Below are positions 12,928 to 35,135 of a stretch of 64,000 nt of DNA, piece after piece. Within the stretch, counting starts at the first letter, position 1. Each line of letters opens with the position of its first letter. Location of the stretch: NCBI RefSeq assembly GCF_000277125.1, contig NC_016946.1, positions 3,038,001 through 3,102,000 of the forward strand. The letters are read 5' to 3'. This stretch comes from Mycobacterium intracellulare ATCC 13950. GTDB taxonomy: Bacteria; Actinomycetota; Actinomycetes; Mycobacteriales; Mycobacteriaceae. Position numbers and translations under genes: made by a program. The notes under the pieces were generated by a model, which did no database searches, was not told where the DNA came from, and saw nothing but the letters and a program-made list of their open reading frames with translations.

Positions 12928-13731
12928 ATGAGACGAGAAGTGGGCGCCGAGATTGAAGTCGAAATCACTGCGGCCACGACGCTGGAGTTCCAGATTGCCG
13001 TTGCGCCGCACCCGCGTGCTGAGGTCTTCGAGTCGCTGCGCTTCGTCTTGAACGGAGAGCAAATCCGGCCCTTGGAGGTCAGCGGACTGCACGGCAACCG
13101 CATCCACAAGTTCGACGCGGAGGTCGGCACGCTGCGCGTGGACTACGCAGCGACGATCGTGGGGCACACTGATCCGGCTCCGGTGACCGAATACGACCAG
13201 TCGATGTACCTGCGGCCGAGCCGTTACGCCGAGGCCGACAAGTTCTATGGTTTCGCCGCCACAGAATTCGGCAATGACCGCGATCCGACGGCGCTGCTGG
13301 AGCACGTCAGTTCCTGGGTGGGCACCAGACTCAATTACGTACCCGGCTCGAGCGATCCGATTGACGGGGCGGTGGACACCCTGCTCGCCGGCGAAGGTGT
13401 GTGCCGTGACTACGCGCATCTGGTCGTGGCACTTCTGCGAGCGGTCAGCGTGCCGGCCCGCTTGGTATCCGTCTACGCGCCCGGGGTAAATCCGATGGAC
13501 TTCCACGCGGTCGCCGAAGCTTTCGTCGAGGGGCAATGGCGGGTGGTCGACGCGACGCTGCTGGCGCCGCGACAGACGCTGGTGCGCATCGCCACCGGTC
13601 GCGACGCTGCCGACACGGCCTTCCTCGATAATCACAAGGGCGCGATCACGCTGGATCGGCTGGTGGTCAGCGCCCTGGTGAACGGCGAATTGCCCCGGGA
13701 CTCGATCGACCAACTGGTTTCGATCCGCTGA
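12928..13731 (+). CDS. Transglutaminase-like (cysteine peptidase fold) protein
   Basis: A 267-residue protein with the transglutaminase core. The catalytic triad is visible as Cys159 (GEGVCRDYAH), His193 (MDFHAVAEAF) and Asp208 (RVVDAT). An N-terminal beta-rich region (1-110) precedes the core, as in bacterial transglutaminase N-terminal modules. There is no signal peptide, so it is probably cytosolic. Such proteins hydrolyse or cross-link amide bonds; the substrate here is unknown. The ATG at 12928 is chosen over a longer in-frame extension that runs back through the upstream regulator. It is divergent from the PAS-ANTAR gene, with 95 bp between starts. Confidence 0.85.
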   Translation: MRREVGAEIEVEITAATTLEFQIAVAPHPRAEVFESLRFVLNGEQIRPLEVSGLHGNRIHKFDAEVGTLRVDYAATIVGHTDPAPVTEYDQSMYLRPSRYAEADKFYGFAATEFGNDRDPTALLEHVSSWVGTRLNYVPGSSDPIDGAVDTLLAGEGVCRDYAHLVVALLRAVSVPARLVSVYAPGVNPMDFHAVAEAFVEGQWRVVDATLLAPRQTLVRIATGRDAADTAFLDNHKGAITLDRLVVSALVNGELPRDSIDQLVSIR

Positions 13732-13981
13732 GGTCAGCCGCAAACCCGAACACCGTGTCATCGCATTTTCGATGAAATCCGCTGCGCCACGGCGTGTTTG
13801 CGCCACGGCGACGCCAAGAGCCGCGTCGCAAGCCGGTGGCAATCATGATTCGCGCTCGCGTTCGGACACGACCGGAGTAGTGTAAGACCATCGGCGATAC
13901 CTCGAACGTGACGAATCAAAGCCATGTCATCGTCGATTCGAATGATTTGGCCCACTTCGCGGCCAAGACGGGAGCGTCAAT

Positions 13982-14449
13982 ATGGCGCCGCATGACGACC
14001 ACACCACTGCCGGGGGCCGGCATGCCCCGCCGCTACACACACCGCGCCTGCGCCTGAAACCGAAGTCGCCCCGCAGCGGGTATGTCGATGGAGCGTGGTG
14101 GCCGCATAGTGACGACCTGACGGCGGAGCTGCCAGATCTGCTGGCAGTGCTATCGGTTCGGCTTGGTCCCGTGGGTCGTGTCATCTACAACCTCACCGAA
14201 TGGGCAACGGCGCCAGCAAAATTGGCGTTCGGCCCGCAGACGGTACGGCTCGACGGATACCGCCGCCAGCCGGTTCACACCGTCGAGGTGCTCGGGCTCA
14301 ATCGCCAGAGAATCACCCTCCTGGTGGTTTCACCGCACACCGACGAAAACGATGCGCACACCGTCATGATGACCGCGGCCGGCCCGAACAACGCCTTGAC
14401 GGTCGCGAACCTCATGATCAGCGGGCAAAAAGTGGACGCCCGCGAGTAG
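13982..14449 (+). CDS. DUF5994 family protein
   Basis: A 155-residue cytosolic protein of a family common in mycobacteria, function unknown. The conserved part begins with PRLRLKPK...GYVDGAWWPHSDDL near residues 20-46, followed by a region typical of the family (RQRITLLVVSPHT). The ATG is preceded by GGGAG at a suitable distance. Mycobacterial genomes carry many DUF5994 copies. Nothing in the neighbourhood reveals a role. Confidence 0.8.
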   Translation: MAPHDDHTTAGGRHAPPLHTPRLRLKPKSPRSGYVDGAWWPHSDDLTAELPDLLAVLSVRLGPVGRVIYNLTEWATAPAKLAFGPQTVRLDGYRRQPVHTVEVLGLNRQRITLLVVSPHTDENDAHTVMMTAAGPNNALTVANLMISGQKVDARE

Positions 14450-14645
14450 ACCATGTCGGCCACATCACGCATCAGCGCCGGATTCGACTGACCCTGTTTA
14501 ACCTGACTTCACGGTGCATTTTCGCCGACCATGCGCGTTGCAGGCGGCCCGAATTATTTTGACTTGGAATTTTAGGTCGGTTTAGTTGGTGGCCGCTTTG
14601 ATAGCGGGACCGGGGTGCGCAGGAGGGGTGTATGCTCGCTAAATC

Positions 14646-14662
14646 GGGACCTGCCAGGTCCC
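14646..14662 (+). promoter_or_regulatory. 7-bp perfect stem-loop in the leader of the small basic protein
   Basis: GGGACCT-GCC-AGGTCCC forms a perfect stem with a three-base loop ending 18 nt before the start codon at 14681. A TATGCT hexamer lies about 12 nt before the stem and could be a -10 element, which would place the stem near the 5' end of the mRNA. RNA stability or translation control is inferred. Confidence 0.5.
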
Positions 14663-14680
14663 CAAATCAAAAAGGCCGCG

Positions 14681-14815
14681 ATGTCTGATAAGTCCCCCCG
14701 GCAAACCATGGGTAAGAAATCGGGTAAATCCCTGAAAGAAAAACGAGCGGCGAAGCGCGGCAAGGCCGCCGAGATCTCGCAGGCGGAAGCCCTGCTGGTC
14801 ACCAAGAAGCGCTGA
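14681..14815 (+). CDS. Small lysine-rich protein
   Basis: A 44-residue, strongly basic protein with a Lys/Arg-rich centre (GKKSGKSLKEKRAAKRGKAA) and a short C-terminal helix (ISQAEALLV). I recognise no named family, but similar small basic ORFs occur in mycobacteria. It could bind nucleic acid or the ribosome. The ATG at 14681 is chosen over an upstream ATG because that would translate through the stem-loop; the ribosome site is weak (AAGG ~5 nt upstream). cspA follows 160 bp downstream on the same strand. Confidence 0.65.
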   Translation: MSDKSPRQTMGKKSGKSLKEKRAAKRGKAAEISQAEALLVTKKR

Positions 14816-14976
14816 GGCGACGATCTTCCTCGATAGCGCCCGTTTATCCGTGATCGGATGCCGCAGGTCCCCAGCGTGCGTGCGCTAATTAACCCCCGCT
14901 ACTTTTTCGCTGGATTGTGTTACGGTTGACCCGGATGTAGCTAATTTCATCCGCTCCGAAAGAAAGCGAAATTCGT

Positions 14977-15180
14977 ATGACACAGGGAACCGTGAAATGG
15001 TTCAACAGCGACAAGGGCTTCGGATTCATCGCCCCCGACGGCGGCGAAAAGGATGTATTCGTCCACCATTCTGAGATCCAGGAAAGCGGCTTCCGCAGCC
15101 TCGAGGAGAATCAGCGCGTCCAGTTCGAGATCACCCAGGGGCCCAAAGGCCCCCAAGCGGTGGGAGTGACCGCCCTCTAG
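14977..15180 (+). CDS. cspA: Cold-shock protein CspA
   Basis: A 67-residue single cold-shock domain with both RNA-binding motifs: RNP1 KGFGFI (14-19) and RNP2 VFVHH (28-32). It is an RNA chaperone that binds single-stranded nucleic acid. The length is normal for the family. The leader is about 150 bp and purine-rich just before the start (GAAAGAAAGCG), as expected for a strongly translated cold-shock mRNA. It is very close to mycobacterial CspA. Annotation is secure; whether it is cold-induced here is not shown. Confidence 0.95.
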
Positions 15181-15328
15181 CGGTGGAGCACGAAAACCCC
15201 TGGGACTGAACGCATTCCACACGGCCCAAGGGCCGGTGATGCCGTTGTCTCGGCCGCTGGACTCGTGCGCCCGTCGAGATACGCGGGGCGCCAATCCAAA
15301 AGCCCCCTTATTGCGTCCGCACTGCGCG

Positions 15329-16567
15329 CTAGGCGGTGCGGCCCCCCGGCTGGCCTCGTCTACCGCGGGTGAGCATCGCCGTCGCCAACCCGCGTCGCCT
15401 CACGTCAGTGTCCGCGATTGCTACGTGCGGCCGGCCCGCGGCGTCCCGAAATCTAATCTCGGACGCTGTCTCTGGCGCGTCGTCGGCGGTCGCGGACAAA
15501 AATCGGTCGGGCAGCGCCAATTTGCAGATCGTGCGGACGGTGAGCAGGTACTGCCGGAGCAGCGGACCGGTGGTGTAGGGCAAGTCGTATCTGACGCACA
15601 GCGCGCGAACCCGTTGAGCGATCTCGGGGTAACGATTGCTCGGTAGATCGGGAAACAGGTGGTGTTCGATTTGATAGCAGAGGTTTCCGCTCATGAACGC
15701 CAACGCCGGACCGGCTCGGAAGTTGGCGGTCCCGAGCATCTGCCGGAGATACCATTCGGGTTTCGTCTCGTTCTCCAAGACCGACGGGGTGAACTTTTCC
15801 GCTCCGTCCGCGAAGTGACCGCAGACGATGACCGCGTACGCCCACACGTTGCGTAACCCGTTGGCCACCACGTTCGCGCCGAGCGTGCGGCGCCATCGAC
15901 GTCGGCCCAGCGCAGGAAAGAAGACGTAATCCTTTGCGGCCTGGCGAGCCATCTTGCGGATCATCACCCGTTTGTGGGCAGATCTACCGGCCTCTGTTGT
16001 CTCGCGATCCCGCACCGCGTACAGGCCATGCAGCGCGACGCCCCATTCGAATGCCAGCGCCAGCAACACCGCGCGCAACGGCTGCGCCAGGGCGCTCGGC
16101 TCCCACTCCTGATCGCGCGTGACCCGCAGGACTCCGAATCCGAGGTCGTCGTCCATGCCCACGACGTTGGTGAACATGTGGTGCAGGTGGTTGTGAGAGG
16201 ACTGCCAGTGCTTCGAGGGACCGACCATGTCCCATTCCCAGGTACTGGAATGGATTTCCGGATCGTTCATCCAATCCCACTGACCGTGGCTGATGTTGTG
16301 GCTGAGTTCCATGTTCTCGATGCACTTGGCCGCAGCCAGCGCTGCGGTTCCGAGAGCCCACCCGGCCTTCGATCTGCTGCCGATGAGGGTCAGTCTGGCC
16401 GCGACCTCCAGGCATCGCTGAAAGGCGATGGCCCGACGGATGTAGTCACGGTCCTTGGTGCCGCGCGAACCTTCGACGTCGCAACGGATCGTGTCCAGTG
16501 CGGCCGCGAGGTTCTCGACGTCGTCATCGCTGAGGTGGGCGTATTCAGGTACTTCGGTAATCGCCAT
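15329..16567 (-). CDS. DesA3-type fatty acid desaturase
   Basis: A 412-residue membrane-bound acyl desaturase with the three histidine boxes of the family: HNISH (90-94), HNHLHH (125-130) and QIEHH (299-303). It resembles M. tuberculosis DesA3, the stearoyl-CoA delta-9 desaturase; electrons would come from an oxidoreductase partner that is not encoded nearby. The start at 16567 (MAITEV...) is favoured because the family begins close to this point; an ATG 33 nt upstream at 16600 is possible. It is a paralogue candidate rather than the desA3 orthologue, since its neighbours differ. Confidence 0.85.
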   Translation of the reverse strand: MAITEVPEYAHLSDDDVENLAAALDTIRCDVEGSRGTKDRDYIRRAIAFQRCLEVAARLTLIGSRSKAGWALGTAALAAAKCIENMELSHNISHGQWDWMNDPEIHSSTWEWDMVGPSKHWQSSHNHLHHMFTNVVGMDDDLGFGVLRVTRDQEWEPSALAQPLRAVLLALAFEWGVALHGLYAVRDRETTEAGRSAHKRVMIRKMARQAAKDYVFFPALGRRRWRRTLGANVVANGLRNVWAYAVIVCGHFADGAEKFTPSVLENETKPEWYLRQMLGTANFRAGPALAFMSGNLCYQIEHHLFPDLPSNRYPEIAQRVRALCVRYDLPYTTGPLLRQYLLTVRTICKLALPDRFLSATADDAPETASEIRFRDAAGRPHVAIADTDVRRRGLATAMLTRGRRGQPGGRTA

Positions 16568-16993
16568 GGAATCAGTGAGATTCGGGCTGAGCGGAGGCAT
16601 GCGGACAGGGCGGGTTTACGAACCGCGGCAAAAGGGGTCACGTCCGATCTTGTGGGTGGTTACGCGCGAGTGGCGAGGATCGACGCGAGGTCAGATAAGC
16701 GGCGAACTTCTCGATCTAGAAAAGCGGCCCGCGGGTTTGGGCGGCACGGCGACGCGTCCGGGACCTACCGGTCCGGTGGACGGCCGTATCATCTGTGTGA
16801 GAGCACCTGCCTGATCGGCTCGTGGGTTGGTCGATACCCGAGGCTACATGAGTTCTCAAAGCCTTCGGACTCATCAGCGTCTTCCACTCGGTGATAGCCG
16901 CTCAAAACAAGCCCACGGGCACCGGAGACCCCCGGCATCGCAGAGCCAATAGTCTGGTGTTTTGGACGCCTGCGCTTTTTGAGAGGTGACGAC
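16568..16993. other. 426-bp divergent intergenic region
   Basis: Separates the desaturase (leftward) from gabD2 (rightward). ORFs in it are short and featureless. The last 30 bp before gabD2 are T-rich and end in a good ribosome site. I see no RNA gene or repeat. Confidence 0.6.
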
Positions 16994-18550
16994 ATGCCCG
17001 CACCGTCAGCCGAGGTCTTCGACCGCCTGCGCCAGTTGGCCGCGATCAAGGACGCCACCGCACGCCAGACCAAGACGATCGACGAGGTCTTCACCGGCAA
17101 GCCGCTGACCACCATCCCCGTCGGCACGGCCGAAGACGTCGAAGCCGCCTTCGCCGAGGCGCGCGCGGCGCAGGCCGACTGGGCGAACCGTCCGGTCAGC
17201 GAGCGCGTCGATGTCATCAGCCGGTATCGCGACCTGGTCGTCGAGAACCGCGAGTTCCTGATGGATCTCCTGCAGGCCGAGGCGGGCAAGGCCCGATGGG
17301 CCGCACAGGAGGAGATCGTCGACCTGGTCGCCAACGCGAATTACTATGCGCGGGTCTCCGCGGACCTGCTGAAGCCGCGCACGGTGCAGTCGCTGCTCCC
17401 GGGCATCGGCAAGACCACGGTGGGTTACCAGCCCAAGGGCGTGGTCGGGGTGATTTCGCCGTGGAACTATCCGATGACCCTGACGGCGTCGGACTCGGTG
17501 CCCGCGCTGCTGGCCGGTAACGCGGTGGTGCTCAAGCCGGACAGCCAGACCCCGTATTGCGCGCTCGCGTGCGCCGAGCTTTTGTATCGCGCCGGCCTGC
17601 CGCGAGCGCTCTACGCGGTGGTGCCCGGACCGGGCTCGGTGGTCGGCACCGCGATCATCGACAACTGCGACTACCTGATGTTCACCGGCTCGACCGCCAC
17701 CGGCAGGCAGCTCGCCGAGCACGCCGGCCGGCGGCTGATCGGTTTCTCCGCCGAGCTCGGCGGCAAGAACGCGATGATCGTCACGCGCGGCGCCAACCTC
17801 GACAAGGCGGCCAAGGCGGCCACCCGCGCATGCTTTTCGAACGCGGGCCAGCTGTGCATCTCCATCGAGCGGATCTACGTCGAGAAAGACATCGCCGACG
17901 ATTTCATCGGCAAGTTCGGCGCCGCGGTGCGCAGCATGAAGCTGGGCTCCGCGTATGACTTCTCGATTGACATGGGAAGCCTGATCTCCGCCGGCCAGCT
18001 GGACACCGTAACCGACCATGTGGACGACGCGAAAGCCAAGGGCGCCAAGGTGATCGCCGGCGGCAAGGCTCGCCCCGACCTCGGGCCGCTGTTCTACGAG
18101 CCCACGGTGCTGACCGACGTGACGCCGGAGATGGAGTGCGCGGCCAACGAGACGTTCGGCCCGGTCGTCTCGATCTATCCGGTGGCCGACGTCGACGAGG
18201 CGGTCGAGAAGGCCAACGCCACCGAGTACGGGCTCAACGCCAGCGTTTTCGCGGGTTCCTCCGCCGAGGGCCAGCAGATCGCCGCCCGGCTGCGGTCGGG
18301 GACGGTGAACGTCAACGAGGGTTATGCGTTCGCGTGGGGCAGCCTCGGCGCACCGATGGGCGGGATGGGCCAGTCCGGCGTCGGGCGCCGCCACGGTCCC
18401 GAGGGCCTGTTGAAGTACACCGAATCGCAGACGATCGCGACCGCACGCGTGTTCAATCTTGATCCGCCGCTTGGCATTCCGTCGACCCTGTGGCAGAAGT
18501 CGCTGTTGCCCATCGTACGGACCGTGATGAAGATTCCCGGGCGGAACTGA
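16994..18550 (+). CDS. gabD2: Succinate-semialdehyde dehydrogenase (NADP+) GabD2
   Basis: A 518-residue aldehyde dehydrogenase, the same length as M. tuberculosis Rv1731, which it strongly resembles. The catalytic Cys288 lies in NAGQLC and the general-base Glu254 in SAELGGKN; the NAD(P)-binding region contains FTGSTATG (230-237). It oxidises succinate semialdehyde to succinate, closing the GABA shunt or the KGD bypass. The ATG at 16994 is preceded by GAGAGGTGA at 7 nt; an in-frame upstream start at 16979 would include the ribosome site. Confidence 0.92.
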   Translation: MPAPSAEVFDRLRQLAAIKDATARQTKTIDEVFTGKPLTTIPVGTAEDVEAAFAEARAAQADWANRPVSERVDVISRYRDLVVENREFLMDLLQAEAGKARWAAQEEIVDLVANANYYARVSADLLKPRTVQSLLPGIGKTTVGYQPKGVVGVISPWNYPMTLTASDSVPALLAGNAVVLKPDSQTPYCALACAELLYRAGLPRALYAVVPGPGSVVGTAIIDNCDYLMFTGSTATGRQLAEHAGRRLIGFSAELGGKNAMIVTRGANLDKAAKAATRACFSNAGQLCISIERIYVEKDIADDFIGKFGAAVRSMKLGSAYDFSIDMGSLISAGQLDTVTDHVDDAKAKGAKVIAGGKARPDLGPLFYEPTVLTDVTPEMECAANETFGPVVSIYPVADVDEAVEKANATEYGLNASVFAGSSAEGQQIAARLRSGTVNVNEGYAFAWGSLGAPMGGMGQSGVGRRHGPEGLLKYTESQTIATARVFNLDPPLGIPSTLWQKSLLPIVRTVMKIPGRN

Positions 18551-18638
18551 CCTTCAGCCGCTTGGTGCGGCCCCATTGCCAGGGTGCTACTACAACGCGT
18601 AGTATTCGGGCATCTTGCCGCGCACAAGGGGGTGCCAT

Positions 18639-19073
18639 GTGAGGTGGAGTTTCGCCCAGGTCGGGCTGCTGATCATTTGTGTTTTCCACGTCATTCAGGC
18701 GGTGATCGGCTTCATCATGAATCCCAGTTTCGCGATCGGGCCCACCGCGCCGACCGTCCAGCTGTTCGGAATGGACTACAACGGGTGGCATGCCGTCGCC
18801 GGCCTTGCGTTGTTCGCTCCAGGCCTGGTCTTCGCGATGCGCAAGTCGTGGTCCGTGTTGTATCTGCTGCTCGCCGCGATCGCCGGTGCGCTGCCGGGCA
18901 TTTGGGCGTTCTTCTCGCATCGGGTCGCGTTCGTGTTCACGTTTCCCAACAACGTCACCGACGCGGTGGTCCACCTGGTGACCGCCGCGATCATGGTGGC
19001 GGTGGCCGCCGTGCAAATCCGGATGGACGGCGGGCTCAAGCAATCGCTCGCCGACCTCCGGAAGGCGCGGTAG
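18639..19073 (+). CDS. DUF4383-type small membrane protein
   Basis: A 144-residue protein with four hydrophobic helices (roughly 5-27, 48-67, 73-96, 108-126), matching the DUF4383 layout seen in many actinobacteria, function unknown. GTG at 18639 (MRWSFAQ...) is preferred over an ATG-less extension at 18615 because AAGGGGG lies 6-8 nt upstream. It follows gabD2 by 88 bp on the same strand and may be cotranscribed. Confidence 0.7.
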   Translation: MRWSFAQVGLLIICVFHVIQAVIGFIMNPSFAIGPTAPTVQLFGMDYNGWHAVAGLALFAPGLVFAMRKSWSVLYLLLAAIAGALPGIWAFFSHRVAFVFTFPNNVTDAVVHLVTAAIMVAVAAVQIRMDGGLKQSLADLRKAR

Positions 19074-19125
19074 GTCTTCAAATGCGCCGTTGCGGGTAGT
19101 CCTTCGGTCGACGAAGGAGGTTGCG

Positions 19126-19260
19126 ATGGGCAAGCACTCGGAAAAGGATGACGACGAGCCGAAGGGCGGCCGTCCCGGCCCCGCGGATCACGGCCACGAA
19201 GGCGGCATGGCCACTCGCGAGAACGCGCCGGAACTCACCGACCCGGACCGTGAGGACTGA
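19126..19260 (+). CDS. Small hydrophilic protein, 44 residues
   Basis: A short acidic/basic mixed protein (MGKHSEKDDDEPKGG...) ending in DPDRED. It has a near-perfect ribosome site, GAAGGAGG, 5-6 nt before the ATG, which is the main reason for calling it. The sequence is low in hydrophobic residues and probably disordered. I recognise no function. It converges on the zinc-ribbon membrane protein 11 bp away. Confidence 0.65.
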   Translation: MGKHSEKDDDEPKGGRPGPADHGHEGGMATRENAPELTDPDRED

Positions 19261-19271
19261 CCGGATAAAAC

Positions 19272-19616
19272 CTACTTGGAGGGGTTGCGGGCTTCCTCGT
19301 AGCGGATGGACGCCACCAAAGCCACGGCGAGCAGGAACAGCAACGGCACGAACACCATCGGGTACGCGGCGACAGCGGCCATGGCGATGAGCGAGCCGGG
19401 CACCCCCAACGTCAACGCGGCCGTCGGATGCTTCTCGCCCATGCTGACGATCCTCGCGGGCGCCGCAAACGCGATCGCGGCCTGCTGATACCGATCCGCC
19501 CACTCGCCGTAGTACGAGCGGCGGGTCTGTCGGCCGCAGGCCACGCAGTTGCGCCCGTAGGAGTAGCGGGTTTTGAGGCCGCAGCCCATGCAGGTGTGGG
19601 TTGTCATCGGGCCCAT
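19272..19616 (-). CDS. Zinc-ribbon membrane protein
   Basis: A 114-residue protein with an N-terminal zinc ribbon (CMGCG near 9-13 and CVAC near 24-27) and two C-terminal hydrophobic segments (about 68-85 and 88-104). It is a small membrane-anchored metal-binding protein of unknown role. The start may be 19616 or 19607 (MTTHTC). It is the last chromosomal gene before the tRNA-Pro-derived repeat at 19676. Confidence 0.65.
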   Translation of the reverse strand: MGPMTTHTCMGCGLKTRYSYGRNCVACGRQTRRSYYGEWADRYQQAAIAFAAPARIVSMGEKHPTAALTLGVPGSLIAMAAVAAYPMVFVPLLFLLAVALVASIRYEEARNPSK

Positions 19617-19675
19617 GCTCTCATCACGGCGAGCGGCCGCCGCGGGCGAGGCGTTCGCCGCCGCCATTCGTAGGC

Positions 19676-19720
19676 CTGGTCGGGCTGACAGGATTTGAAC
19701 CTGCGACCACTTGACCCCCA
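19676..19720 (-). repeat. att copy: 45-bp duplicate of the tRNA-Pro 3' half
   Basis: Perfect 45-of-45 match to 25162-25206, which is the CCA end, T arm, variable loop and anticodon-stem 3' side of the intact tRNA-Pro gene. The match stops inside the anticodon loop. Such duplications mark the far end of an element integrated by a tyrosine recombinase. Confidence 0.9.
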
Positions 19721-20023
19721 AGTATGTCTCCTGCGTCAACGCGTGTTCGCTTGTGGTCGATTTCCGAGGAAGGCGGTTTTCCAACACTGGCTTACGCCCG
19801 CTGACATCACCTAAAGGGCGTACAAAAGGGCGTACCTGGCGGCTTTGGCTTCCGCAGGAAAATTGTGCGCGCATTCGTCGTGAGCGTGAGGCGTTGGGCG
19901 TGCCCTGGCATGCGCCGCGCGACATCGCAACCTGACTGATCGCGGGCACTCCAACCGCTCCTCCCAGCAGGGGCATAGTCGGTTCTACGGTCACCCGGCC
20001 GCCAACGGAGTTATAACCGACGC
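19721..20023. other. Left end of the island, non-coding, with tandem 11-bp repeats
   Basis: About 300 bp without a convincing gene. It contains AAAGGGCGTAC twice (19813-19823 and 19825-19835) at a 12-bp period. Repeats of this kind near an attachment core could be arm-type integrase sites; this is only a suggestion. Confidence 0.5.
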
Positions 20024-20740
20024 ATGATTGGAACTTTGCAAGCGCTTCTGGTAGCCGTCTTCGCGGTGCTACCGGGCGCCTTGTACACGCTTGCCCGCGA
20101 AAGTTTTGGTGCAACTTGGGCATGGCGACAAACCGACACGGCAACTCAAATTTTCCGCTTCCTCAGTGCGTCAGCGCTGTTTCATGCAATATTCGCTCCA
20201 CTTACCTACATTGCGTATCAGACGCTTGTGGTCACTGATGCTCTCGCGTACGGCGACCGGATCTCGTGGTGGTGGTGGGCCGCCATAGGGGCGTATGTCA
20301 GCGTCCCTTATCTCTTGGGTTACACGACGGAGTGGTCGCGCGACTGGAAAGAATCCTCACGGCGCCTTCTGAAACGGCCGAAGCGCGGCGTCAAGGCGCT
20401 GCTTAGTTTCATCGGCGGGAAGGATCCGGAACCGCGGGCATGGGATTGGTTCTTCTCCAAGGGGCCAGTCGGGATCGTTCGCCTGCAACTGATGAATGAA
20501 GAGTGGAAGGCTGGGTTATGGGCCGATTCGTTTGCCAGCGGCTACGGGGAGGACGGCGATTTGTACATCGCCGAAACGTACCTCATCGAGAACGATGGAC
20601 AGCTGCAACTCGAGGAGGACGGGCAGCCTATACCCGGCGGCGTCGGACTCCTGATCCGCTGGTCAGAAGTTAGATATCTTGAATTTAGTCCGTGGCTAAC
20701 GGAGGAAACCGACAACGGCGAGGACGGGGACGATGGCTGA
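20024..20740 (+). CDS. DUF6338 family membrane protein
   Basis: A 238-residue protein with three N-terminal hydrophobic segments (about 3-22, 45-70, 83-102), then a basic stretch (KESSRRLLKRPKRG) and a ~120-residue soluble domain ending in an acidic tail (EETDNGEDGDDG). This matches the DUF6338 layout; the function is unknown. It is the first island gene and overlaps the next gene by 8 nt. Lower GC than the chromosome indicates horizontal origin. Possible roles are membrane effector or immunity component; neither is shown. Confidence 0.7.
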   Translation: MIGTLQALLVAVFAVLPGALYTLARESFGATWAWRQTDTATQIFRFLSASALFHAIFAPLTYIAYQTLVVTDALAYGDRISWWWWAAIGAYVSVPYLLGYTTEWSRDWKESSRRLLKRPKRGVKALLSFIGGKDPEPRAWDWFFSKGPVGIVRLQLMNEEWKAGLWADSFASGYGEDGDLYIAETYLIENDGQLQLEEDGQPIPGGVGLLIRWSEVRYLEFSPWLTEETDNGEDGDDG

Positions 20741-20963
20741 ACGACCAACATCGAAGAGCGGCGGCGGCAAGGAACGCCAAGCTGGAGCAGGTCGCGTCGA
20801 GAAGCGCGTCGCGGACGGTGGCGGCATCGAAAAGAAGGGTGGTTATCCATCCGGGTCCAGGCCACAGAAGGGCACCCCGCCGGTGCCGGCTGCATTCACC
20901 TCAAAGCCTGCAAACACCACCCCGGCACCAAAGCCCCAACGGTCGCAAGGCTCATCCGAGTAG
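20733..20963 (+). CDS. Small disordered protein overlapping the DUF6338 gene
   Basis: A 76-residue Gly/Lys/Pro/Ser-rich protein (KSGGGKERQ..., PKPQRSQGSS) predicted to be disordered. The ATG at 20733 overlaps the end of the DUF6338 gene by 8 nt, so translation is probably coupled. That coupling and the shared operon suggest a functional partner. No family is recognised, and it could be a fast-evolving accessory subunit. Confidence 0.55.
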   Translation: MAERPTSKSGGGKERQAGAGRVEKRVADGGGIEKKGGYPSGSRPQKGTPPVPAAFTSKPANTTPAPKPQRSQGSSE

Positions 20964-21184
20964 GCCTCGCCGCAACCTCATCCAGGTTGCTGCAAACTGT
21001 TGTGACGTCGGCAACGTCGCACTATCGGGACATCCGTCGCGGACGGCGCCGTCACGTAATCGTCCGAGACATGGATTACGTCCGATCTTGACCATGGGTG
21101 GGACCGAGGTTGGGTTGATCGTCGCGCTGCCTTGGTCAGAAGCGCACCCGGCACGAGAATCCTGTCGCACGGGTACACACCGGC

Positions 21185-22792
21185 TCACTTGTATTGCGGG
21201 TTGGCCTTTAGGAACTCGTCGAGATTCAGAACCGCTCGACGCAATGCACGTAGATCCTGTTCCGGTACTTCGACCCAGCCGCCGTCGGAGTCGTCTATGT
21301 CATCACCATCTAGATCAACCGCGAGTAGTCCCCGGGGCGCATTTTGGGTGTTGATCAAATCGACGTACGCGCCGTAGTCGATAACGTAGACGTCATACCG
21401 CTCGCCCGGCTCGTCTTGAGCGGAGTAGCCGCGGCGGACCAGGTGCAACACACGCGCGTCGAAAAGCGCAGTAAGAAGCCGCTCGCCTGAAGAGCGCTGA
21501 TTGACCAAGAAGCCGCGGGCACGCTTCTCACGGATGACCGTATCAATTACCCAGTTGAGCAGCTCTATACCGCCGGTTACACCGCGCAGCGCAGATTCCT
21601 TATCCGTTTGGAACCACTGGCGGCTGGCGCGCCGCACCTCCGGCATCGATATCTGGCGATCGCCAGCCCGAACGGCCGCCTTCGCTGCGATGTTGATCGC
21701 GTCGCGCGGCACGCCTTCGGATGCGCGGACCAGCTCATCGAATACCCGCTTGCTAGTAAAGCCCATCGACACCAGATCACGCTCAGTTCGAAGGCCCGGC
21801 ACCTGCTCTGCGTCGCTGGCCCCCGCCGTCAGATGCTTAAAAAGCAAGCCACGGAAGAAGTCTCGCGCCCGTTCGCGATCATGCTCGAACACCATGAAAT
21901 CATCGAGATCGACGTTGGCAGCAAAATCGGCACCGAGCTCGATTCCGATGGTTTCGTTATTCGCCGTGGTCGTTCGAAAGCGCGTCTGCTGCTCGATCGC
22001 GGCAATTTTGACGGTGAAACCCTGAACTGGTGTTACGCAACGCACGAGGAATTCACCCAGGTAGGGCTGCATATCCAGGGGCACGCTGCTCCATTCATCC
22101 AGCAGAAGCCAGATTCGGCGGGCCCTCAGCGATTCCGCCACTGCGCGCAATGAACGTGCGATCTCGCCGAAGTTGAGGCTAGGCCGCTCCTCACCTTTGC
22201 GTTTCGCTGATTGCCTGTTTTGATCGGAATTCGACATTCCGACACCCGCCATCGCATTAGCGGAGAGCCGGGTTAACGAAAACCTTGCCCGCAGTGATGC
22301 TTTCTCCTTCTTCTCGTTTTGATGCTCGTAGGATTCTTCGACCTGCCCTCCCTCGACGCGCGTGTTGCGCAGGGCTTGGTCCAGGAAATCGAGGTTCTGC
22401 GCGATTGCTTCATCTGCGATGAGTTCGTCGTCGTTTAACACCGCCTCGAGGATCGCGTCGTGAACCTCCAAGAGGAGGTTGGCAAGGAGCCTCGATGTCC
22501 GCGCGATCGGCGAGGCGCGCTCCGGGTCGAACAACCCCTCGGCCGAGCCGATGATTCGTAGGTCAATGTAGATGCCAATATCCCCGTACTCGGCCCGCGT
22601 CGCAGCAAGGTATCTCAGGGCGTGCGTCTTGCCTGTGCCGCGCCTGCCGTAAAGGACTTGGTGATCAATAGACTCGAGGGCTGCAGCGACCCCAGAATCG
22701 ACAAAAGTGTCGCGTAGCTGTGCACTCACCCGAGACTCCGCTCTACGTGGGACTCGGTTGAAGGCTCGGTTGATGTCGGAGACGCCTGGCAC
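21185..22792 (-). CDS. ORC/CDC6-like AAA ATPase
   Basis: A 535-residue ATPase. The P-loop GRRGTGKT is near residues 49-56, and a Walker B motif (RIWLLLDE) is near residue 230. A charged, probably flexible insert (EESYEHQNEKKEK...) separates them, followed by an AAA lid region (SMGFTSKRVFDELVRASEGVPRDAINIAAKAA) and a C-terminal part that could be a winged helix. The order resembles the ORC-CDC6-type NTPases carried by many mobile elements, some near defence genes. The GTG start at 22792 is weakly supported. It is transcribed toward the DUF6338 pair with 221 bp between. GC is lower than the host. Function unknown; candidates are an element-encoded defence ATPase or a DNA-remodelling factor. Confidence 0.75.
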   Translation of the reverse strand: MPGVSDINRAFNRVPRRAESRVSAQLRDTFVDSGVAAALESIDHQVLYGRRGTGKTHALRYLAATRAEYGDIGIYIDLRIIGSAEGLFDPERASPIARTSRLLANLLLEVHDAILEAVLNDDELIADEAIAQNLDFLDQALRNTRVEGGQVEESYEHQNEKKEKASLRARFSLTRLSANAMAGVGMSNSDQNRQSAKRKGEERPSLNFGEIARSLRAVAESLRARRIWLLLDEWSSVPLDMQPYLGEFLVRCVTPVQGFTVKIAAIEQQTRFRTTTANNETIGIELGADFAANVDLDDFMVFEHDRERARDFFRGLLFKHLTAGASDAEQVPGLRTERDLVSMGFTSKRVFDELVRASEGVPRDAINIAAKAAVRAGDRQISMPEVRRASRQWFQTDKESALRGVTGGIELLNWVIDTVIREKRARGFLVNQRSSGERLLTALFDARVLHLVRRGYSAQDEPGERYDVYVIDYGAYVDLINTQNAPRGLLAVDLDGDDIDDSDGGWVEVPEQDLRALRRAVLNLDEFLKANPQYK

Positions 22793-23479
22793 GTGACCAC
22801 ACTAGGACCATTAATCCTGACAATCGAGCAAGAGGACATGAGCGTCCCGTTCTGAGGCGCCAACGCAACGCATTGGAGGTTGTTTAGGCCGCGCGTGAAT
22901 TCGCCGGCAAAATGGCAGCTCACCGTTGACCTCGATACTTGGTCGACGTCGGCTGTAAGTCGTATTGCGTGGGCGGCATCCCACGCGGATCCGCTATCAG
23001 AGCCTCGACCCACCGTGGCGTCCGCCCATCTTCTGGCGGCGCCGCCCGGTCCGGGGCACGTTTTACCCGCGCCATCAGGTCACCGCCCGCAGACGGGCTC
23101 ACTCCGCGCCCGCCGCACGGAATCCCAGCGCGAGTTCGCGGCCCGCTGATGTCGTTCCGACTTCGCGACACCCTCACCAACGACCACATTGGTCCACCGT
23201 CGTTCGGTGACCGCTAATGTCCAGTAGGCCACACGATCTCAGGATCCACATTGTCTAGTGCCTTCGCAGTCAACACTTTTGCAGCTCGGAATACTTTCGT
23301 CGCAGGTCAACTTGGGTGCAGCAGCCAACGAACAGGCGACACCCAACTCCAAATTCATAGGCCCAATTCCTACCCGACCTGTACGACACGCCCGGCCCGC
23401 GCAAGCAATTCAAGCCGCGTGTTGTCACCGTCGTCAACCGCCACCGATCGAAAGGCGTTGCACGCCAACGCCGCGTGCT

Positions 23480-23493
23480 GTTGACCCGTCAAC
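23480..23493. promoter_or_regulatory. Dyad GTTGAC-N2-GTCAAC, candidate operator
   Basis: Perfect 6+6 inverted repeat centred about 50 bp upstream of the -35 hexamer of the promoter at 23536. It shares its half-site with several other copies in the same region. The binding protein is unknown. Confidence 0.4.
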
Positions 23494-23535
23494 GAAAGCT
23501 GTTGATACGTAAACACTTTCGCGGCTTCAGCCTGG

Positions 23536-23564
23536 TTGACGCGCCACCGCCACACGCCTACCGT
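23536..23564 (+). promoter_or_regulatory. SigA-type promoter for a leaderless mRNA
   Basis: TTGACG (23536-23541), 17-bp spacer, TACCGT (23559-23564), then 8 nt to the ATG at 23573. This spacing puts the transcript start at or next to the ATG, and no ribosome site is present, so the mRNA is probably leaderless, a common mycobacterial arrangement. Confidence 0.65.
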
Positions 23565-23572
23565 CAGCACCC

Positions 23573-23893
23573 ATGACAACGAGCACACCAGCCCCCACGC
23601 CCCTGTCCGTCCCAACGCCTCCCGACGCCGCCCACGTCGGCGAATGGGAGCTGAGCGACGACGACCGGATCGTGCAACGACACTTCCACTGCGGCGACCA
23701 AACCACACCCAGCGGGCTACACGTCAAGGTCCACGGCTTTCAGTACATCTACGGCGGTTTCGACGGGCTGAGCATCGCGGTCAGCGACGGCCAAGAATCC
23801 GTGATGGTGGACGCCGCCGACGTCGAGCACCTGGCCGCCGCGCTGCGTAACGCGGCCGACGAACTCGATAGGCTGGCTGGACGTCTGGGATAG
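23573..23893 (+). CDS. Small island protein, 106 residues
   Basis: An acidic cytosolic protein with a Pro/Thr-rich start, a central beta-rich part (GLHVKVHGFQYIYGGFDGLSI) and a C-terminal helix (VEHLAAALRNAADELDRLAGRL). Similar small proteins occur in mycobacterial prophages and islands, but I cannot name a family. It has a well-placed promoter and a leaderless start. Its codon use is closer to the host than that of the ATPase gene. Confidence 0.65.
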   Translation: MTTSTPAPTPLSVPTPPDAAHVGEWELSDDDRIVQRHFHCGDQTTPSGLHVKVHGFQYIYGGFDGLSIAVSDGQESVMVDAADVEHLAAALRNAADELDRLAGRLG

Positions 23894-23950
23894 GAGCCCC
23901 AATAGAAAAGCCCGCCACCGCAAGGGAGACGAGGGCAATACCGTAACCGT

Positions 23951-24430
23951 ATGAACGCATCCGATCCAACCCTCGCACGGCCCTGCCTCGTGTGCCTACT
24001 CGCCGAAAACGACGACATCCTCTTGCCGATACAGCACAACGGCGTCGGCTCAGTCGAACATCACAGGGCAACGGTCACAAGACTTGAGGACGACGAACCT
24101 AACCGGCGTATCCGCATGACTGTCCGAATCCACGATCTCGGTACGACTGTCACCAACGACGTGAAGCCTGGCGACCTTATCCATCGCGTCCTCGACGGCA
24201 ACGACCCACAAAGCCAGGCCTACGTGCGGGCAGCCGACCTTTGGAAGTGGGAGGGGCTCATAATGGACGATCCCGACGGCAACGGAAAGGTCAAGCTGAT
24301 ACGCGCCGTGCGTGGACCCCACCCCGGAGATGGCCACGAAATTCTCGCTCTAGTCGTGGAGGACGGACAGCAGCAGCGTCGACCAGTCTGCCTCGAAATG
24401 ACCGGCGGCCTGTTCTGCGAATGGAACTAG
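23951..24430 (+). CDS. Unknown island protein, 159 residues
   Basis: A cytosolic protein with no recognised domain. It has one CxxC near the N-terminus (CLVC at 13-16) and two further cysteines, and several Asp-rich turns. It follows the 106-residue gene by 57 bp and may share its promoter. A purine-rich AAGGGAGACGAGGG stretch lies about 20 nt before the ATG, farther than ideal. Function unknown. Confidence 0.6.
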   Translation: MNASDPTLARPCLVCLLAENDDILLPIQHNGVGSVEHHRATVTRLEDDEPNRRIRMTVRIHDLGTTVTNDVKPGDLIHRVLDGNDPQSQAYVRAADLWKWEGLIMDDPDGNGKVKLIRAVRGPHPGDGHEILALVVEDGQQQRRPVCLEMTGGLFCEWN

Positions 24431-24504
24431 ATCGCCCAGTCCCGTGGTGGGCTGCTCTGTCAGTGGCGCTCGCTGCCCATCGCCACCGACGTCATGGCTG
24501 CCCG

Positions 24505-24843
24505 CTAGGGCCGCAGCCGCGCCTTGAGCGCTGCCGTGAGGTACGGCCCTGGCGAACCTGTGCCCGGCGTGAACGTCACCCCGAACCCGTCAGCCGAAAG
24601 GCTCTGCGTCTCAGGTAGCAGTTTTGCCGGCCGAATGAGCACGGCCGCGGCCAACGCCGCTACTACCCGCAGGACCGGCCCCGGCGTCGGCGTTGGCACC
24701 TCCGACGGCCACAGGTACCCGGTCACTAGGTCGCTTGCCTCGCTGAGCAGTTCGTCGACCGGCGGCAGGTCGTCGGCCAGCTCGGCGTGGCCGATCGCTC
24801 GCAGCGCCGCCTTGACGTCCTCCTCGCTCGCGTATGCCACCAC
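24505..24843 (-). CDS. Phage head-tail connector-like protein
   Basis: A 112-residue protein (YASEEDVKAALRAIG..., DELLSEASDLVTGYLW...) with the all-helical start and the late SADGFGVTFTPG...YLTAALKARLRP end typical of small head-to-tail connector/adaptor proteins of actinobacterial phages (Gp19/Gp15/Gp42-like group). GTG starts at 24843 or 24840 follow a GGGAGG site. It overlaps or abuts the end of the gene at 24848-25048. It suggests the island began as a prophage. No capsid, portal or tail genes remain. Assignment is moderate. Confidence 0.6.
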   Translation of the reverse strand: MVAYASEEDVKAALRAIGHAELADDLPPVDELLSEASDLVTGYLWPSEVPTPTPGPVLRVVAALAAAVLIRPAKLLPETQSLSADGFGVTFTPGTGSPGPYLTAALKARLRP

Positions 24844-24847
24844 CGGG

Positions 24848-25048
24848 TCACCGCCTCCCGGCGCGGCGGGTCTTGGCCAGCCCACCCGACCAGGACTGCA
24901 CGATTTTGAGCACGTGCAGCGGCTGCACCCGCGCGGCGGCGTCGGCCAGGCGCTCGTCGTCGCCCTGGCGCAGCTCGTCGATACGTCGCTTGACGACTGC
25001 TCCGTCGACCGGCGCCCCGGCTGTGATCGCATCACCGGCGGCCCGCAT
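24848..25048 (-). CDS. Small phage-like protein upstream of the connector gene
   Basis: A 66-residue charged helical protein (VVKRRIDELRQGDDERLADAAARVQPL) ending in a basic tail. Its stop at 24848-24850 lies 4 nt before the connector start, so the two are probably translationally coupled. It may be the C-terminal remnant of a larger capsid-region gene cut by the island boundary. The start is uncertain (ATG 25048, with in-frame TTG upstream). Confidence 0.45.
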   Translation of the reverse strand: MRAAGDAITAGAPVDGAVVKRRIDELRQGDDERLADAAARVQPLHVLKIVQSWSGGLAKTRRAGRR

Positions 25049-25112
25049 GACACTCGACAATTTTTGGACGGGTTGCCATCCGCGTTGCCATCCATACCCC
25101 AGGCGGGTACAG

Positions 25113-25148
25113 AAAAGGCGGTTCCCGATTTCGAGAAAACCGCCCTTT
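25113..25148 (-). terminator. Intrinsic terminator after tRNA-Pro
   Basis: Reading leftward from the tRNA 3' end, AAAGGGCGGTT pairs with AACCGCCTTT across a 14-nt loop, followed by TTTTCTGT. It begins about 15 nt after the CCA end. It lies inside the island, so the element supplies the terminator. Confidence 0.6.
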
Positions 25149-25161
25149 ACCTGCAATAACT

Positions 25162-25206
25162 CTGGTCGGGCTGACAGGATTTGAACCTGCGACCACTTGA
25201 CCCCCA
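25162..25206 (-). repeat. att copy at the intact tRNA-Pro
   Basis: The 45-bp segment of the intact tRNA gene that is repeated exactly at 19676-19720. It covers one base past the CCA through part of the anticodon loop. This is the core in which strand exchange would have occurred. Confidence 0.9.
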
Positions 25207-25239
25207 GTCAAGTGCGCTACCAAACTGCGCCACAGCCCG
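25163..25239 (-). tRNA. tRNA-Pro (anticodon GGG)
   Basis: A 77-nt tRNA including an encoded CCA. The acceptor stem CGGGCTG pairs with CAGCCCG; the anticodon stem CTTGA/TCAAG encloses the loop CTGGGGG, giving anticodon GGG; the T arm contains GGTTCAAATCC. It reads proline CCC/CCU codons. It is intact and serves as the integration target of the adjacent island. Confidence 0.95.
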
Positions 25240-25391
25240 CGCGCCAGTGGTTCCCACCGGCAGCAGGTCGAAAGCCTACCGCAAGCGCCGGGCCGCCCCG
25301 CCCATCGACCTTCCCTGCGCGGCGTCCGCCCCGTGCGCCCAGGCCAGCAGCGCGCGGGTGAGTTCGTCGCGCGTCACGCAGAGCCCATCGC

Positions 25392-26792
25392 TCAGCGCCG
25401 CCGGGCGCCCCGCTTTTCGCGCACCCGCACGTTGATCCGGATCGGCGACCCCTCGAAGCCGAAGGCCTCGCGCAGCCGTCGCTCCAGGAAACGCCGATAG
25501 CCCGCCTCGAGGAAGCCGGTGGTGAACAGCACGAACGTCGGGGGCCGGGCAGTGGCCTGGGTGGCGAACAGGATCCGCGGCTGCTTGCCGCCGCGCACCG
25601 GTGGCGGGGTGGCCGCCACCACCTCTTTCAGCCAGGAATTCAGCGGGCCGGTGGCGATCCGCGCATCCCACGACGCCAGCGAGGTCTCCATGGCCGGCAC
25701 CAGCTTTTGCACGGCGCGGCCGGTCTTGGCGGAGATGTTGACGCGCGGCGCCCACCGCAGCTGCACGAGTTCGCGGTCGATCTCGCGCTCCAGCAGCTCG
25801 CGCCGGTCCTCGTCGACCAGGTCCCACTTGTTGAAGGCCAGCACCAAGGCCCGGCCGGCTTCGATGACCATCGACAGCACCCGCTGATCCTGTTCGGTCA
25901 GCGGGTCCGACGCATCGATCAGCACGATCACCACCTCGGCCGCGTCGATGGCCGAGTGCGTGCGCACCGATGCGTAGAACTCGTGGCCGCTGGCCTGACC
26001 GACCTTGCGCCGCAAACCCGCCGTGTCGACGAACCGCCACACCCTGTCGCCCAGCTGTATGAGGGAGTCCACCGGGTCCACCGTCGTCCCCGCGACATCG
26101 TGCACCACCGAGCGCTGATCGCCGGCCAGCTTGTTCAGCAGCGAGCTCTTGCCCACGTTGGGTTTACCGACCAGCGCCACGCGCCGCGGGCCACCGGGTT
26201 TGGGGCCCACCTCCGACACCGCGGGCAGCGCGGCCAGCACCTCGTCAAGCAGATCGGCCACCCCGCGGCCGTGCATGGCGCTGATCGCGTGCGGCTCACC
26301 GAGCCCCAGCGACCACAACATCGCCGCGTCCGCTTCGGCCTTGTCGCTGTCAACCTTGTTGGCGGCCAGGAACACTGGCTTTCCCGACCGCAGGAGGATC
26401 CGGGCGGCGGCTTCGTCGGCCGAGGTGGCGCCGACGACGGCGTCGACCACCAGGATCACCGCGTCCGCGGTGCGCATGGCCACCGAGGCCTGCTCGGCCA
26501 CCAGCTGCTGCAGCCCCTTGGCGTCGGGCTCCCATCCGCCGGTGTCCTGCACGACGAACCGGCGGCCGGTCCACAGCGCGTCGTAGGACACCCGGTCGCG
26601 GGTGACGCCCGGGATGTCCTGAACCACCGCTTCGCGACGGCCCAGGATCCGGTTCACCAGCGTGGACTTGCCGACGTTGGGCCGGCCCACCACCGCCACC
26701 ACCGGCGCCGGGCCGGCCTCCTCCTGTTCGTCGATGCCGAATTCGACGGATTCCCAGTCGCTTTCGTCACTCCATGTACCGTCCTGGGTCAC
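25392..26792 (-). CDS. der: Ribosome-assembly GTPase Der (EngA)
   Basis: A 466-residue protein with two tandem GTPase domains, each with its own P-loop: GRPNVGKS near 36-43 and GKPNVGKS near 208-215, both with DTxG and NKxD motifs (NKVD, NKWD). A C-terminal KH-like domain ends in a basic tail (EKRGARRR). Der is needed for 50S assembly. The GTG at 26792 overlaps the cmk stop by 4 nt (GTGA), and the length is close to that of the M. tuberculosis protein (463). It is the last gene of the parA-der operon. Confidence 0.95.
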
Positions 26793-27460
26793 CGCACCGC
26801 CCCGCTTCGCTGGTCGACCAAGTCCCGCAGATGGGTGATCACCTGCGCCTCGGTCATCTCGCTGGTGTCGACGACCACCGCGTCGGGGGCGGCCCGCAGC
26901 GGCGACACCGCCCGCGTGGAATCCAGATGGTCGCGACGGCGGACGTCGGCGAGCGCGGCGTCGTAGTCGTCGGCCAGCCCGGCCGCCACGTTCTGGTCGT
27001 TGCGCCGACGCGCCCGCGTTTCTGCCGACGCGGTCAAAAAGATCTTCACCGGCGCGTCGGGCAGGACGACGGTGCCGATGTCGCGGCCCTCGACGACGAC
27101 ATCGCCCGGCCCAGCGGCCATCTCGCGCTGCAACTCGACCAGCCGGGCGCGCACCGCGGGCACCGCCGACACCGCCGAGACGGCGCCGGTGACGGCATCC
27201 CCCCGAATCTCGGTGGAAACGTCCTCTCCGGCAAGCAAACACCGATCGCCGTCCACCGACAGCTGCGCCGTCGACCCGACCCGGCCGACCGCGTCGACGT
27301 CGCCCGGATCGACGCCCGCACGCAACACGGCCAGCGTCACCATCCGGTACATCGCCCCCGTATCGAGGTAGCGGGCCCCTAAAGCGCACGCCAATCCCTT
27401 TGACACCGAAGACTTTCCGGTACCCGCCGGGCCGTCGATGGCCACCACTACCCCACTCAC
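26789..27460 (-). CDS. cmk: Cytidylate kinase
   Basis: A 223-residue kinase with an N-terminal P-loop (GPAGTGKSS near 10-18) and the CMP-binding VVEGRDIGT motif near 120-128, followed by an Arg-rich lid (AETRARRR). It phosphorylates CMP and dCMP. The start overlaps the rluB-like gene by 4 nt and the stop overlaps der by 4 nt, so it is translationally coupled on both sides. The cmk-der pairing is conserved across actinobacteria. Confidence 0.95.
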
Positions 27461-28200
27461 AGGCCCACCGCCTTGTAGAGCTGCCCGATCTCGTCGCGGC
27501 CCAGCGCCCGGAAGCTGCCCGGGCGCTGCTTGCCGAGCGACACCGGCCCAATGTCGGTGCGCACCAACGCTTCCACCGGGAACCCGGCCGCCGCCAGCAG
27601 CCGGCGCACGATGCGATTGCGGCCCTCGTGCAACGTGACCCGCACCAGCGTCTTACCCGGGATCGCGTCCACCACCGCGAACTCGTCGACCCGCGCGGGA
27701 CCGTCGTCCAACTCGATCCCGGCACGCAGCGCCTTGCCGACACCGCGGGGCACCGACCCGGTCACCGTCGCCAGGTACGTCTTGGGCACCTCGTGGGAGG
27801 GATGCATCAGCCGGTGCGCGAGTTCACCGTCGTTGGTCAGCAGGATCAGCCCTTCGGTGTCCGCGTCCAAGCGCCCGACGTGAAACAGGTTCTTGTTCCC
27901 GCGAACTCGCCGTTCGATCAAATCACCGATACACGGCCGCCCGCGGTCGTCCGACATGGTCGAGTGCACGCCGCGCGGCTTGTTCAGCGCCAGATACACC
28001 TGCGAATCGTCGAGGACGATCCGGGCCCCGTCCACACGGATCACCGAGGCGTCCGGGTCGACGCGGGTGCCCAATTCGGTCACCACCTGCCCGTCCACCT
28101 CGACGCGGCCCTCGATGATCAACTTCTCGGCGGCCCGCCGCGACGCAATTCCGGCCTGGGACAACACCTTTTGCAGCCGGATTCCCTCAGCTTCGACCAT
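27457..28200 (-). CDS. rluB: rRNA pseudouridine synthase, RluB type
   Basis: A 247-residue enzyme with an N-terminal S4 RNA-binding domain ([22 protein letters not shown]) and an RsuA/RluB-type catalytic domain. The catalytic Asp is in [17 protein letters not shown] near 107-123, and the family C-terminal motif [11 protein letters not shown] is near 192-202. It would modify a 23S rRNA uridine (RluB class) and corresponds to Rv1711. The ATG at 28200 overlaps the scpB stop by one base (TGATG); an in-frame TTG is one codon earlier. Confidence 0.9.

Positions 28201-32729: not shown

Positions 32730-35135
<2,406 letters not shown>

What the first reader, a model, noticed from the sequence alone, without database searches (positions are those of the whole stretch)
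19676..25206. Cryptic 5.5-kb island between 45-bp direct repeats of tRNA-Pro(GGG), with no integrase
The repeat is an exact 45/45 match covering the tRNA 3' half, the hallmark of tyrosine-integrase insertion. The cargo is lower in GC and includes a phage head-tail-connector-like gene, yet no integrase, excisionase or replication gene is visible. It could be a decayed prophage, or a small satellite-like element mobilised in trans.
Basis: partly seen in the sequence, partly recalled or inferred. Interest (0 to 1): 0.75.

Follow-up and report, generated by a model that had tools for sequence, protein, structure and literature searches.

The report
Stranded two-ended island at tRNA-Pro
A 5.5-kb scrap of mobile DNA sits beside a proline tRNA gene in a Mycobacterium genome; its two ends carry what look like the recognition marks of two different integrases, so it is probably the stranded leftover of two separate insertions and not a small element that can still move.

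Summary
Window 19676-19720 and 25162-25206 are identical over 45 of 45 bases; the second copy is the 3' half of tRNA-Pro(GGG), 25163-25239, minus strand. A related genome (G155) has the uninterrupted site with one tRNA copy, so 5,486 bp were inserted. No integrase or fragment was found in the island. In five relatives an integrase stops 75-112 bp before the core; the window keeps that ~90-bp arm but not the gene.

The new point is the ends. Relatives usually carry the same short tandem repeat, probably integrase arm-type sites, at both ends (11 of the 13 units with detectable pairs, of 28 scanned). The window has AAAGGGCGTAC on the left (G271 type) and GTTGCCATCC on the right (G224/G107 type). 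Best reading: a chimera. Two elements integrated side by side and a deletion removed the inside, integrase included. The only phage gene seen is one head-to-tail adaptor lacking its last 15 codons. Cargo with open frames includes a DUF6338 protein, an ORC/CDC6-like ATPase and a 159-aa protein. Mobilisation in trans is not excluded but looks unlikely. It is a remnant of a known kind at a busy hotspot.

The parts
19676..19720 (.). Left core copy (attL side): detached 45-bp duplicate of the tRNA-Pro 3' half
   Evidence: 45/45 identity; host left flank runs into it, and the same flank runs into the single tRNA copy of G155
19813..19835 (+). Left arm repeat: AAAGGGCGTAC twice, 12-bp period (G271 type), probable arm-type integrase site
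   Evidence: window 19676-19835 is 80% identical to the attL end of the G271 element
20024..20740 (+). DUF6338 protein, 238 aa: N-terminal helices that look membrane-type by eye and a C-terminal Sm-like beta barrel in the predicted model
20733..20963 (+). 76-aa open frame overlapping the end of the DUF6338 gene; partial match beside the DUF6338 gene of an M. intracellulare plasmid
   Evidence: 57% over 35 aa in L125
21185..22792 (-). ORC/CDC6-like AAA ATPase, 535 aa, Walker A (GRRGTGKT) and Walker B-like (LLLDE) motifs read by eye; open frame
   Evidence: PF24389 E 4.7e-13; 75% aa identity to Mycolicibacter heraklionensis; pN 0.169, pS 0.762
23573..23893 (+). 106-aa open frame, weak DUF6907-like
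   Evidence: PF21848 20.7 bits, below the 26-bit cut-off
23951..24430 (+). 159-aa protein of unknown function; N-terminal half predicted as an EF-P/eIF5A domain-I-like barrel
24460..24843 (-). Lone phage head-to-tail adaptor gene; reading frame ends at 24505, 15 codons short of the phage gene's end
   Evidence: phrog_137 E 1.3e-19; 79% DNA identity to SirPhilip gp13, with no match of the neighbouring gp12 or gp14 proteins beyond chance in 24301-25210
25072..25161 (+). Right arm: GTTGCCATCC twice (25072, 25084), 12-bp period, then the int-stop-to-core spacer; G224/G107 type; the integrase itself is absent
   Evidence: (homology starts at 25072 in G259, G107 and G169)
25162..25206 (.). Right core copy (attR side), the 3' half of the tRNA gene
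25163..25239 (-). tRNA-Pro(GGG), complete, target site

Best explanation
The island is an immobile, att-bounded remnant with ends from two different integrative elements. SHOWN: one insertion of 5,486 bp between two copies of the tRNA-Pro 3' half, absent from G155; no integrase found; left and right ends with different tandem repeats; arrays with several cores in relatives. INFERRED: the repeats are arm-type integrase sites; a G271-type element integrated at tRNA-Pro; a G224/G107-type element then integrated at the regenerated tRNA site beside it; a deletion (homologous or illegitimate) removed the right part of the first, the middle core and the integrase-bearing part of the second, leaving the left end of one and the right end of the other around cargo. 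With no integrase and mismatched arms it is stranded and inherited vertically. The cargo (DUF6338 protein, ORC/CDC6-like ATPase, 159-aa protein) is the part likely to be kept by selection, perhaps for phage defence; that last step is a guess. The confidence given is for 'stranded remnant with hybrid ends'; for the tandem-then-deletion order alone I would say about 0.5.
For: Empty site: in G155 the left flank (window 18587-19720, 88.8%) runs into the right flank (window 25165-28000, 89.1%) with one tRNA copy. Integrases of G224, G258, G216, G259 and G011 stop 75-112 bp before the core; the spacer of G224, G258, G216 and G259 resembles the window's, which lacks the gene (G011 is less alike). Arm repeats: under a strict rule 13 of 28 units scanned have tandem repeats at both ends; 11 of the 13 match, and the two that do not are the window and G107; G258, G271 and G111 also match by shared 9-mers. 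The left arm of the window is matched over 160 bp by G271; the next longest left match seen is 78 bp in G248 (capped lists). Arrays with three cores (up to 5 mismatches) occur in G011, G062, G111 and G020. Of 22 units whose interior was fetched whole, I count 10 with no integrase hit, 3 with a broken or short one and 9 with a long open one. Paired arm-type repeats flanking the core, differing between phages that share a target, are described for mycobacteriophages (PMC3203893, passages).
Against: That the repeats are arm-type sites is inferred from position and pairing; no binding was measured. In 15 of 28 units one or both ends showed no pair under the strict rule, and the cross-pair control is not clean: 42 of 156 wrong pairings also pass the match rule, since several elements share a motif type. 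No middle core or breakpoint scar was found in the island, so tandem-then-deletion cannot be told from a hybrid end formed before integration. Which cargo came from which element is unknown. Strain-level presence in the species was not tested.
Confidence: 0.7

Rival explanations
1. One decayed prophage or satellite (PICI-like) that lost its integrase and most genes by internal deletion; the different arms are divergence within one element.
For: One phage adaptor gene remains. Relatives at the same tRNA include 9.5-10.6-kb elements with integrase, AAA_25/helicase-like gene and major capsid gene (G271, with an excisionase-like HTH gene as well, and G216). Broken or short integrases occur in 3 of 22 units.
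Against: Arms match in 11 of the 13 units with pairs at both ends, and the two window arms belong to different motif types. The adaptor is nearest to SirPhilip-like phages, genus Anayavirus (that these are cluster K is my recall); K1 phages such as Anaya use tmRNA, not tRNA-Pro (PMC3203893, passages). No capsid, portal, terminase or tail family was hit among the frames given.
Confidence: 0.15
2. The hybrid ends arose before integration, for example by recombination between two excised elements or in a donor, and the unit was inserted in one step by an integrase since lost. (Shares the hybrid-end claim with the best explanation; differs in the order of events.)
For: G107 has mismatched arms and still has an integrase on the side of the right arm, so a hybrid-ended unit with a long integrase frame exists.
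Against: G107 may itself be a tandem-deletion product: another right-arm-type repeat lies just outside its left core.
Confidence: 0.2
3. A small satellite-like element, active and mobilised in trans by a helper's integrase.
For: Both cores are intact and identical; cores alone might recombine weakly. The 90%-identity cluster of the ATPase holds 8 sequences on 13 contigs, the longest 5,613,941 bp, so the gene is not in this genome alone.
Against: Nine integrase-profile hits in the own genome; in the five of eight loci compared, no match to the eight element integrases exceeds 38% identity except a 168-aa C-terminal fragment, 53% identical to the G030 type. The whole island was matched only in its own genome among 248 (about two candidates scored per genome).
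Confidence: 0.06

Closest known systems
CIME, cis-mobilizable element (term and tandem-accretion model as given in passages of PMC5704250, which cites Pavlovic 2004)
   Same: Has attL and attR, lacks integration genes, sits at a tRNA 3' end where other elements integrate in tandem.
   Different: The two ends look to come from different element types; ancestry from an ICE or IME is not shown (some neighbours are capsid-bearing); cis-mobilisation not tested.
Mycobacterial candidate PICIs, including the phiRv1/phiRv2 class (PMC10654092, section 9), and phiMmcs_1 and phiMmar07 at tRNA-Pro (PMC3986857, passages)
   Same: Same kind of target; the G271 and G216 relatives have a tyrosine integrase plus a capsid gene in about 10 kb.
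   Different: The window island has neither integrase nor capsid gene among the frames scanned.
SirPhilip-like mycobacteriophages (Anayavirus; cluster K by recall)
   Same: One gene, the head-to-tail adaptor: SirPhilip 78.7%, LastHope 75.6% DNA identity.
   Different: Only that gene found; truncated; K1 target is tmRNA.
pSAM2-type actinobacterial integrative elements (recalled: integrate in tRNA-Pro)
   Same: Target tRNA, from recall.
   Different: No FtsK-like transfer or Rep family among the eight island frames scanned.

Membership tests
CIME (cis-mobilizable element) | attL and attR retained | tested here: met
CIME (cis-mobilizable element) | integration genes lost | tested here: met
CIME (cis-mobilizable element) | derived from a conjugative or mobilizable element that lost its transfer genes | tested here: inconclusive
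   No transfer family hit among the eight island frames given; ancestors not identified
CIME (cis-mobilizable element) | can be moved in cis with a tandem element | not tested
   needs wet-lab work; no third core found in the island
PICI / phage satellite (criterion of PMC10654092: integration machinery plus major capsid gene) | integrase present | tested here: not met
PICI / phage satellite (criterion of PMC10654092: integration machinery plus major capsid gene) | major capsid gene present | tested here: not met
   no capsid family among the frames given; SirPhilip capsid protein finds only an 11-aa chance match in 24301-25210
Cluster K prophage | phage structural genes around the adaptor | tested here: not met
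   nothing convincing of gp12 or gp14 beside the adaptor
Cluster K prophage | integration in tmRNA (K1) | tested here: not met
   island lies at tRNA-Pro; K1 target from PMC3203893, passages
pSAM2-like AICE | FtsK-like transfer protein and replication initiator | tested here: not met
   none among the eight island frames scanned at E up to 1
MADS defence system | mad8-like ATPase with the other mad genes | tested here: not met
   weak mad8 hit (24.1 bits) for the ATPase only; no other mad model among the six frames scanned

The most novel reading that the evidence does not exclude
tRNA-Pro(GGG) of Mycobacterium works as a ratchet: successive elements with the same core but different arm specificities pile up, deletions fuse foreign ends, and the resulting hybrid-ended islands can no longer be excised by any single integrase, so their cargo becomes permanent. 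Arm mismatch would then be a readable signature of stranded cargo, here an ATPase and a membrane Sm-like protein that may act against phages.
Probability: 0.15. Interest if true: 0.6.

Novelty: new member of a known kind. Interest (0 to 1): 0.36.

Why it matters
It turns a vague 'cryptic island without integrase' into a testable history. Comparing the short repeats just inside the two attachment sites may tell whether an att-bounded island is one element or a fusion of two, and so whether it is likely to move. At this tRNA, 10 of the 22 units read in full had no hit to the integrase profile used, so att repeats alone are a poor sign of mobility.

Tried and rejected
Chance repeat or old tRNA duplication: rejected by the empty site in G155 and by one full tRNA only. 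Plasmid origin of the whole island: the DUF6338 stretch matched two M. intracellulare plasmids (65% DNA identity; one of them read) and the other eight records matched little more than the core. ATPase in phages or viral contigs: no relative. DUF6338 and the 159-aa protein in phages: no match. Defence filing of the ATPase: weak mad8 hit only; of its 23 plasmid relatives I read two, Burkholderia glumae and Acetobacter, with IS elements nearby (in Acetobacter also an annotated integrase and another AAA ATPase) but no named defence set; no match in the sequences of solved structures. The guess that the 106-aa gene is related to a 108-aa gene of G258 was not borne out. A pattern search meant to find the arm of published element phiMmcs_1 gave scattered hits, many of them simple repeats, none recognised at tRNA-Pro. 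Adaptor elsewhere in the genus: own genome plus two weak partial hits in 248. Literature searches; none of the titles or abstract beginnings shown named this island, but the library is partial, and the species is my recall (a 5,402,402-bp chromosome, fits what I remember of M. intracellulare ATCC 13950; not checked). Absence from other genomes is weak, as about two candidates were scored per genome.
Full report
WHAT IS THERE. The window lies at G000:C1:3038001-3102000 of a single-contig genome of 5,402,402 bases; phage and genus matches point to Mycobacterium. The 45-bp repeat is exact. Its right copy is the 3' half of tRNA-Pro(GGG), 25163-25239 on the minus strand, the only tRNA found in the window. 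Between the copies are a DUF6338 protein, an overlapping 76-aa frame, a 535-aa ORC/CDC6-like ATPase, a 106-aa frame, a 159-aa frame and a phage head-to-tail adaptor. Interior GC is 61.5%, window 68.5%.

IT IS AN INSERTION. Searching both flanks in 248 genomes of the genus pointed to G155:C13. There the left flank (88.8% identity) runs directly into the right flank (89.1%) through one tRNA copy. Other relatives differ at the site: G070 has about 89 kb between its cores, G271 has 9.5 kb with an integrase, and in G142 the two flanks lie about 28 kb apart. Among the 37 genomes of the genus, own included, I count 14 that list at least one partial copy of the tRNA 3' half; the listing was cut, and in some the copy is on another contig. 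This tRNA is a hotspot.

THE INTEGRASE IS GONE BUT ITS DOORSTEP REMAINS. In G224, G258, G216, G259 and G011 a tyrosine integrase in an open frame of 383-411 aa stops 75-112 bp before the core, and the spacer of the first four resembles the window's; G011 is less alike. In G160 and G271 the integrase lies near the core in the other orientation, and in G107 another gene lies between integrase and arm. In the window the homology starts at 25072, the first base of the arm repeat, in G259, G107 and G169, and a few bases earlier in G224 and G160; to its left lies the phage adaptor region and no integrase. A profile of eight such integrases finds nothing in the island; its only window hit at E up to 0.001 is the XerD-like gene (my naming) at 31791-33341.

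THE TWO ENDS DISAGREE. Where a pair is detected, it lies mostly about 94-125 bp inside the left core and 77-103 bp inside the right core, with a 10-13-bp period. Within an element the two pairs usually agree: GTTGCTATCC in G224, G020 and G021; GTTGCTGTAC in G160 and G216; GTTGGCGTA in G062; a TGTGACAA-like repeat in G209 and G030; GGGCGTAC in G271. In a scored test, 28 units were scanned (G111 entered three ways); 13 had detectable pairs at both ends; 11 agreed and 2 did not: the window and G107. The other 15 could not be scored. Of 156 deliberate mispairings 42 also passed, since some elements share a type, so the test is supportive and not overwhelming. The window has AAAGGGCGTAC at 19813 and 19825 and GTTGCCATCC at 25072 and 25084. 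Its left 160 bp are 80% identical to the G271 end, and its right arm plus core is 82-85% identical to G259, G107, G169 and G224. Integrases of the two groups are about 59% identical (G224 against G271). Pairs of arm-type sites around mycobacteriophage cores, with sequences that differ among phages sharing a target, are described in PMC3203893 (passages read); PMC10865867 (passages) describes such pairs flanking the core.

HOW IT PROBABLY AROSE. Four genomes show three cores in a row (G011, G062, G111, G020, up to 5 mismatches in a 32-base core), so side-by-side integration happens here. Deleting from inside one element to inside its neighbour leaves what the window shows: one left end, one right end, no middle core, no integrase. 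The deletion itself is inferred. Integrase loss is frequent: of 22 units read in full I count 10 with no hit, 3 with a broken or short one and 9 with a long open one; other recombinase families were not tested. In the window's own genome the integrase profile gives nine hits in eight loci, one of them the XerD-like gene of the window. I compared five loci with the eight element integrases: apart from short pieces the matches are at most about 36% identical, and the closest is a 168-aa C-terminal fragment, 53% identical to the G030 type. So no resident helper is apparent.

VERDICT. Real, and well explained as a stranded hybrid remnant at a hotspot. The kind is known: an att-bounded remnant without integrase fits the CIME idea in PMC5704250 (passages), and PICI-like elements of mycobacteria are in PMC10654092 (passages and section 9). 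The arm-mismatch argument is the fresh part. A specialist would find it neat and not startling.

Noticed in passing
PMC3986857, Table 1 (passages): The 10-bp 'att' printed for phiMmcs_1 at tRNA-Pro (CCGTTGCCGT) resembles the arm repeats seen here and not the tRNA core; the one for phiRv2 is itself a tandem repeat. Some published att calls may be arm sites. A pattern search did not settle it.
   Followed up: partly
L061 (G107:C3:540000-555000): Second hybrid-ended unit: left arm GTGTGACAACG, right arm GTTGCCATCC, with an integrase and a 166-aa gene (restriction-like by eye) between integrase and right arm; another arm-like repeat lies outside its left core.
   Followed up: partly
L069 (G088), L080 (G134): AbiE-like genes (by eye) in a 4.5-kb tRNA-Pro unit of G088 without integrase hit, and next to the 159-aa homologue in G134.
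   Followed up: no
L063, L066, L137 (G258, G216, G271); also L076 (G160): 9.5-10.6-kb units at tRNA-Pro with integrase and HK97-type capsid gene (G258, G216, G271; AAA_25 gene in G216 and G271; tape-measure gene in G258; G160 capsid only by eye): likely satellites or decayed prophages.
   Followed up: partly
G000:C1:4954596-4955027 (L151): 168-aa C-terminal integrase fragment related to the G030-type tRNA-Pro integrase, 1.9 Mb from the island, with no tRNA or core in its 3.4-kb locus.
   Followed up: partly
window 9000-17000: GC varies between 59 and 68%, below most of the window; most of 15001-16851 is shared with G155 (81.5%), so that part is not specific to this genome.
   Followed up: no
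G107: 64 tyrosine-integrase matches in one 4.6-Mb genome, several in repeated sets of neighbouring genes.
   Followed up: no
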